From Pseudomonas paralcaligenes (GTDB taxonomy: Bacteria > Pseudomonadota > Gammaproteobacteria > Pseudomonadales > Pseudomonadaceae): a stretch of DNA of 64,000 nt. The stretch lies in NCBI RefSeq assembly GCF_019655855.1, contig NZ_BPFX01000005.1, positions 62,001-126,000 of the forward strand, written 5' to 3'. The notes below the pieces were generated by a model. The model saw only the letters and a program-made list of their open reading frames with translations, ran no database searches and was not told the DNA's origin. Made by a program: the position numbers and the translations under genes. Positions 63,038 to 64,000 of the stretch are shown here, in pieces. Position 1 is the first letter of the stretch. Each line of letters opens with the position of its first letter.

Positions 63038-64000
<963 letters not shown>

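What the first reader, a model, noticed from the sequence alone, without database searches (positions are those of the whole stretch)
63284..63286. GyrA Ile83: known quinolone-resistance substitution, encoded by an atypical codon
The QRDR reads HPHG-D-I-A-V-Y-D with Ile at 83; wild-type P. aeruginosa GyrA has Thr83 and T83I is its principal fluoroquinolone-resistance change. All the other Ile codons I can see in this gyrA segment are ATC; this one is ATT, which fits a single C-to-T change from ACT. Asp87 is wild type. It could mean selection by quinolones, or be normal for the species.
Basis: partly seen in the sequence, partly recalled or inferred. Interest (0 to 1): 0.75.

Follow-up and report, generated by a model that had tools for sequence, protein, structure and literature searches.

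The report
Acquired quinolone-resistance change in gyrase A
This Pseudomonas genome carries the classic fluoroquinolone-resistance change in its DNA gyrase; its relatives suggest that the change is acquired rather than normal for the lineage, and that its codon differs from theirs by two bases rather than one.

Summary
In detail: codon 83 of gyrA is ATT (Ile) at 63284-63286, Asp87 is unchanged, and the other 25 Ile codons among codons 1-320 are ATC. "Acquired fluoroquinolone resistance" is well supported, though strains of the same species and the MIC could not be checked. Ile83 matched in 5 of 398 genus genomes. In the window's group of the gyrA tree, nine other distinct sequences have Thr83, all ACG; a tenth (G352) has Ile, ATT. 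The second-step change ParC Ser80Ile (E. coli numbering) matched in 3 of 398 genomes, all three among the five with GyrA Ile83 (chance about 1e-6, uncorrected for kinship). This genome has wild-type ParC and unremarkable GyrB/ParE quinolone regions, so it looks like a first-step mutant. The route "single C-to-T from ACT" is not supported: from the group's ACG, ATT needs two base changes, and codon 83 is the only one of 34 codons differing from the nearest relative that has two. The substitution is textbook; the two-base route is the mildly new point.

The parts
63038..64000 (+). gyrA, DNA gyrase subunit A, first 321 codons (gene continues past the window; 927-aa open frame in the assembly)
   Evidence: match to gyrase chain 9nx4
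63284..63286 (+). codon 83, ATT = Ile, in place of Thr (ACG in the group's Thr83 members)
63236..63355 (+). quinolone-resistance-determining region, codons 67-106; Asp87 kept; apart from Ile83 identical to 9nx4 in this stretch
   Evidence: the 67-106 bounds from a passage of PMC12724665
61693..62826 (+). upstream neighbour gene, mtnA-like by recall of the P. aeruginosa gene order (no family search run); ordinary chromosomal setting
   Evidence: ORF only; name recalled

Best explanation
It is an acquired, quinolone-selected GyrA Thr83Ile substitution in a Pseudomonas other than P. aeruginosa. Thr83 lies at the gyrase-DNA-drug site; replacing it by Ile weakens fluoroquinolone action on gyrase while the enzyme still works (established for P. 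aeruginosa, inferred here). The genome looks like a first-step mutant: topoisomerase IV (ParC) still has its wild-type Ser. The group's Thr codon is ACG, so Ile most likely arose by two base changes, through a silent or a Met step, a double change, or gene exchange. Shown: the codon, its rarity, Thr/ACG in relatives, wild-type ParC, and co-occurrence with ParC Ile in other genomes. Inferred: selection by a quinolone, a raised MIC, and the route.
For: Ile83 pattern in 5 of 398 genus genomes, gyrA found in 396 of the 398. Nine of the ten other distinct gyrA sequences of the group have Thr83, all ACG. Against the nearest relative only 3 amino-acid differences in codons 1-320 (Y50F, T83I, A188T), and codon 83 is the only one of 34 differing codons with two base changes. 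ParC Ile pattern in 3 of 398 genomes, all among the five Ile83 genomes (hypergeometric 9.6e-7); a sixth Ile83 genome, Denitrificimonas caeni L074, also has ParC Ile. In P. aeruginosa evolved under ciprofloxacin Thr83Ile arose in 12 of 12 reactors, with ParC Ser87Leu following in its background in 6 of 12 (passages of PMC8262867). A preprint computes a loss of about 2 kcal/mol in the residue-83 interaction with ciprofloxacin for T83I (passages of PMC12724665).
Against: No strain of the same species and no MIC were available, so a fixed species trait is not excluded. ParC is wild type here, so the strongest marker of drug selection is absent in this genome itself, as in G396. No class 1 integron 5'-CS site, and the two pentapeptide proteins found do not look like Qnr by eye, so the other signs of drug exposure that I looked for are absent. 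The structural preprint reports no appreciable contribution of Thr83 to keeping the drug bound and proposes an effect on drug access instead, so the exact mechanism is open.
Confidence: 0.84

Rival explanations
1. Ile83 is fixed in this species (a natural trait, giving intrinsic low susceptibility), not acquired under recent drug use.
For: Only one genome per species is held, so within-species variation is unseen. ParC is wild type. Another Ile83 genome, G396, also lacks the ParC change.
Against: The relatives nearest in gyrA have Thr83 (the eight closest distinct sequences), and 3 of the 4 other Ile83 genomes of the genus draw carry the second-step ParC change, which points to drug selection as the usual cause of Ile83 in this genus.
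Confidence: 0.13
2. The Ile83 codon was imported by recombination from a related resistant species (G352-like), which would explain the shared ATT. This is a sub-route of the acquired reading, so its odds overlap with it.
For: G000 and G352 share ATT. From gyrA base 244 to 284 they match at all four sites that distinguish G352 from G028, and of 11 group sequences compared only these two have T at base 321.
Against: A scan for clustered G352-like sites gives p = 0.344 over 60 informative sites, 2000 permutations. Differences from G352 at bases 243 and 285 bound any perfect tract to about 41 bases.
Confidence: 0.1
3. Sequencing or assembly error.
For: Reads are not available; the assembly has 351 contigs.
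Against: Two adjacent bases would have to be wrong and jointly give the one famous resistance residue; the frame is intact and gyrA lies about 125 kb into a 173-kb contig.
Confidence: 0.02

Closest known systems
GyrA Thr83Ile of fluoroquinolone-resistant Pseudomonas aeruginosa
   Same: Same residue, same replacement, same QRDR context HPHGD-x-AVYD, Asp87 wild type.
   Different: Another Pseudomonas species; codon ATT in a group that uses ACG (two base changes). In the three Ile83 genomes with ATC (G099, G290, G396) the nearest neighbour in the gyrA tree has Thr as ACC, one change away.
GyrA 83 plus ParC 80 double mutants of other Gram-negative bacteria ('double-serine' mutants; passages of PMC5715326)
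   Same: Equivalent GyrA position; three genus relatives and D. caeni have the GyrA plus ParC pair.
   Different: The window's genome has only the GyrA half.

Membership tests
GyrA Thr83Ile fluoroquinolone-resistance substitution | Ile at GyrA 83 in an intact gyrA | tested here: met
GyrA Thr83Ile fluoroquinolone-resistance substitution | Thr83 is the usual residue in close relatives | tested here: met
   9 of 10 other distinct group sequences Thr (all ACG), one (G352) Ile
GyrA Thr83Ile fluoroquinolone-resistance substitution | Thr83 in other strains of the same species | not testable with these tools
   one genome per species held
GyrA Thr83Ile fluoroquinolone-resistance substitution | raised ciprofloxacin MIC | not testable with these tools
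   needs the strain
High-level double mutant (GyrA 83 plus ParC 80/87) | ParC Ser replaced | tested here: not met
   ParC HPHGD-S-ACYE, codon AGC
   the nine Thr83 group members have ACG; the closest ACT seen is G201 (L125), 92.9% identity, outside the group
Imported allele from a G352-like species | clustered donor-like sites around codon 83 | tested here: inconclusive
   scan p = 0.344

The most novel reading that the evidence does not exclude
A Pseudomonas species group writes Thr83 as ACG, a codon from which the main resistance residue Ile cannot be reached by one base change. Two species of the group have nevertheless arrived independently at the same Ile codon ATT, which would reveal a hidden intermediate (silent ACT, or Met83) or exchange of the resistant codon between species.
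Probability: 0.45. Interest if true: 0.4.

Novelty: new member of a known kind. Interest (0 to 1): 0.2.

Why it matters
It documents the classic gyrase resistance change in a Pseudomonas other than P. aeruginosa. It also suggests that a few genomes standing for their species in reference collections carry target-site resistance, which should not be mistaken for a natural species trait. The codon history gives a small, testable case of synonymous codon choice constraining a resistance route.

Tried and rejected
Natural trait of the species group: rejected, since nine of ten other group sequences have Thr83; at species level it stays open.

Single step from ACT: not supported.

Recombination from G352: 19 of 60 informative sites in gyrA codons 1-320 are G352-like, the best cluster is bases 248-279, permutation p = 0.344. 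Not supported, not excluded for a very short tract.

Other quinolone determinants in the genome: the stretch around the EGDSA motif of GyrB and ParE was compared with 13 other genomes and shows no hot-spot change known to me (hot spots recalled). A GyrB Lys-to-Arg in the RNR-K motif is shared with the Thr83 relative G028. Class 1 integron 5'-CS primer site: none with up to 1 mismatch. Pentapeptide proteins: a 214-aa one that begins like an exported protein and a 114-aa one, judged by eye not to be Qnr-like (no family search was run on them). Efflux pumps and their regulators, and other acquired resistance genes, were not examined.

Naming the species: not achieved. The nearest named gyrA among the 80 loci kept of 583 confirmed matches is Pseudomonas sp. 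GD04019 (L032, 95.6% DNA identity in 960 bases). A search of the plasmid collection with window 40000-64000 gave no near-identical record (best 79.7-82.1% among the rows seen, 5 of 19 listed). It is not P. aeruginosa, judging by GyrA differences from 9nx4.

Literature: seven searches. Only the top rows of each were listed (for example 20 of 2,977); among the listed titles and abstract starts I recognised none on natural Ile83 or an ACG-to-ATT route in this group. Passages of four papers were read; no paper was read whole.

Full report
Observation. Window bases 63038-64000 encode the start of gyrA, in a 927-aa open frame of the assembly. Codon 83 (63284-63286) is ATT, Ile, and Asp87 is wild type. 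Of 26 Ile codons in codons 1-320, 25 are ATC and only this one is ATT. Farther along gyrA two more ATT occur (3 of 53 Ile in the 812 codons held). P. aeruginosa GyrA in PDB entry 9nx4 has Thr here (the entry's organism from passages of PMC12724665).

Rarity. A degenerate DNA pattern for HPHG-D-Ile-A-V-Y-(D/E) matched 5 of 398 genomes drawn from the genus, and the reversed control pattern matched none of the rows listed. gyrA itself was found in 396 of the 398 (E up to 1e-200). The five are G000 (the window's genome, ATT), G352 (ATT), and G099, G290 and G396 (ATC). In a class-wide draw the pattern matched 2 of 369, one of them G000 itself; gyrA was not counted in that draw, and the exact pattern could miss diverged genes. 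Read directly, 140 of the 142 loci then in hand gave a clean gyrA segment (L002, which is parC, and L081, which is incomplete, were left out). Collapsed to 135 distinct sequences they have Thr 92, Ser 36, Ile 6 and Asn 1 at residue 83. These loci were fetched partly because they had Ile, so this is not a frequency.

Relatives. The window's group in the tree of 46 gyrA segments holds ten other distinct sequences. Nine have Thr83, at 93.1-96.4% DNA identity to the window, all with codon ACG; the tenth, G352 (94.1%), has ATT. Two more distant sequences in or near that identity range lie outside the group and use other Thr codons: P. delhiensis L033 (93.2%, ACC) and G201 L125 (92.9%, ACT). Against the closest relative, G028 (96.4%), there are 35 base differences in 34 codons of the first 320. 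Three change the protein (Y50F, T83I, A188T), and codon 83 is the only codon with two base changes. An ACT allele inside this species cannot be excluded.

Independence. G000 and G352 are not sisters in the tree of 46 gyrA segments (supports not printed), in the tree of parC+gyrB+parE from 14 genomes (G000 with G028, support 0.987), or in the longer gyrA tree of the same 14 (G000 with G229, support 0.779). The trees disagree about the sister of G000, so fine relations are uncertain. The 14 were chosen to include the Ile83 genomes, so I draw no ancestral state from those trees alone. A scan for a G352-like tract in gyrA was not significant (p = 0.344), though a tract of about 41 bases cannot be excluded.

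Second-step marker. ParC of the window's genome reads HPHGD-S-ACYE (AGC), wild type. Of the 14 genomes compared, G352, G290 and G099 have Ile (ATC) at that position, and the other eleven, G000 and G396 among them, have Ser. In the 398-genome draw the exact ParC-Ile pattern matched these three and no others; the presence of parC was not counted in that draw. The chance that all three fall among the five GyrA-Ile83 genomes is 9.6e-7 by a hypergeometric count, with no correction for kinship. G099 and G290 are sisters among the 14, but in the wider gyrA tree each sits beside a Thr83 neighbour. Denitrificimonas caeni (L074), found through the named contigs, has both GyrA Ile83 and ParC Ile. Against this, G000 and G396 have Ile83 without the ParC change. 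The GyrB and ParE stretches examined in G000 look like those of its relatives.

Mechanism. In P. aeruginosa evolved under ciprofloxacin, Thr83Ile appeared in 12 of 12 reactors, and ParC Ser87Leu appeared in 6 of 12, on the last day of one run and in the Thr83Ile background. [quoted passage not shown] A preprint with the P. aeruginosa gyrase core structure computes a loss of about 2 kcal/mol in the residue-83 interaction with ciprofloxacin for T83I, but finds DNA contacts dominant and proposes that drug access is affected (passages of PMC12724665). Another paper reports T83I and D87N as apparent positive-selection sites, with 111 of 480 P. aeruginosa strains bearing T83I alone (passages of PMC9415716). 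The most likely reading here is a first-step, drug-selected mutant with reduced susceptibility. The MIC is inferred, not measured.

Verdict. The finding is real and the resistance reading is probable (0.84), but the substitution is textbook. The modest new point is the codon: in a group that spells Thr83 as ACG, Ile is found, as ATT, in two species that are not sisters.

Noticed in passing
L074 (Denitrificimonas caeni DSM 24390), gyrA codon at 3247; ParC in L209: The strain carries both GyrA Ile83 (ATT) and the ParC Ile80-equivalent (ATC), a fluoroquinolone-resistance pair.
   Followed up: partly
L137 / L211 (G311), gyrA codon 83: Asn83 (AAT), the only Asn among the 135 distinct segments read, with ParC Ser wild type.
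   Followed up: partly
L213 (G607, 1.0-Mb genome, same class): The Ile83 pattern matches with codon ATA in a small genome; may be natural there.
   Followed up: no
window about 41659-54533: Three P. aeruginosa plasmid records (96-167 kb) match pieces of this region at about 80% identity, with ordinary-looking chromosomal genes; either chromosomal DNA on plasmids or mislabelled records.
   Followed up: no
L202:1330-1974: A 214-aa pentapeptide-repeat protein that begins with a signal-like stretch, beside a PQQ-type dehydrogenase-like ORF (names by eye); judged by eye not Qnr-like.
   Followed up: partly
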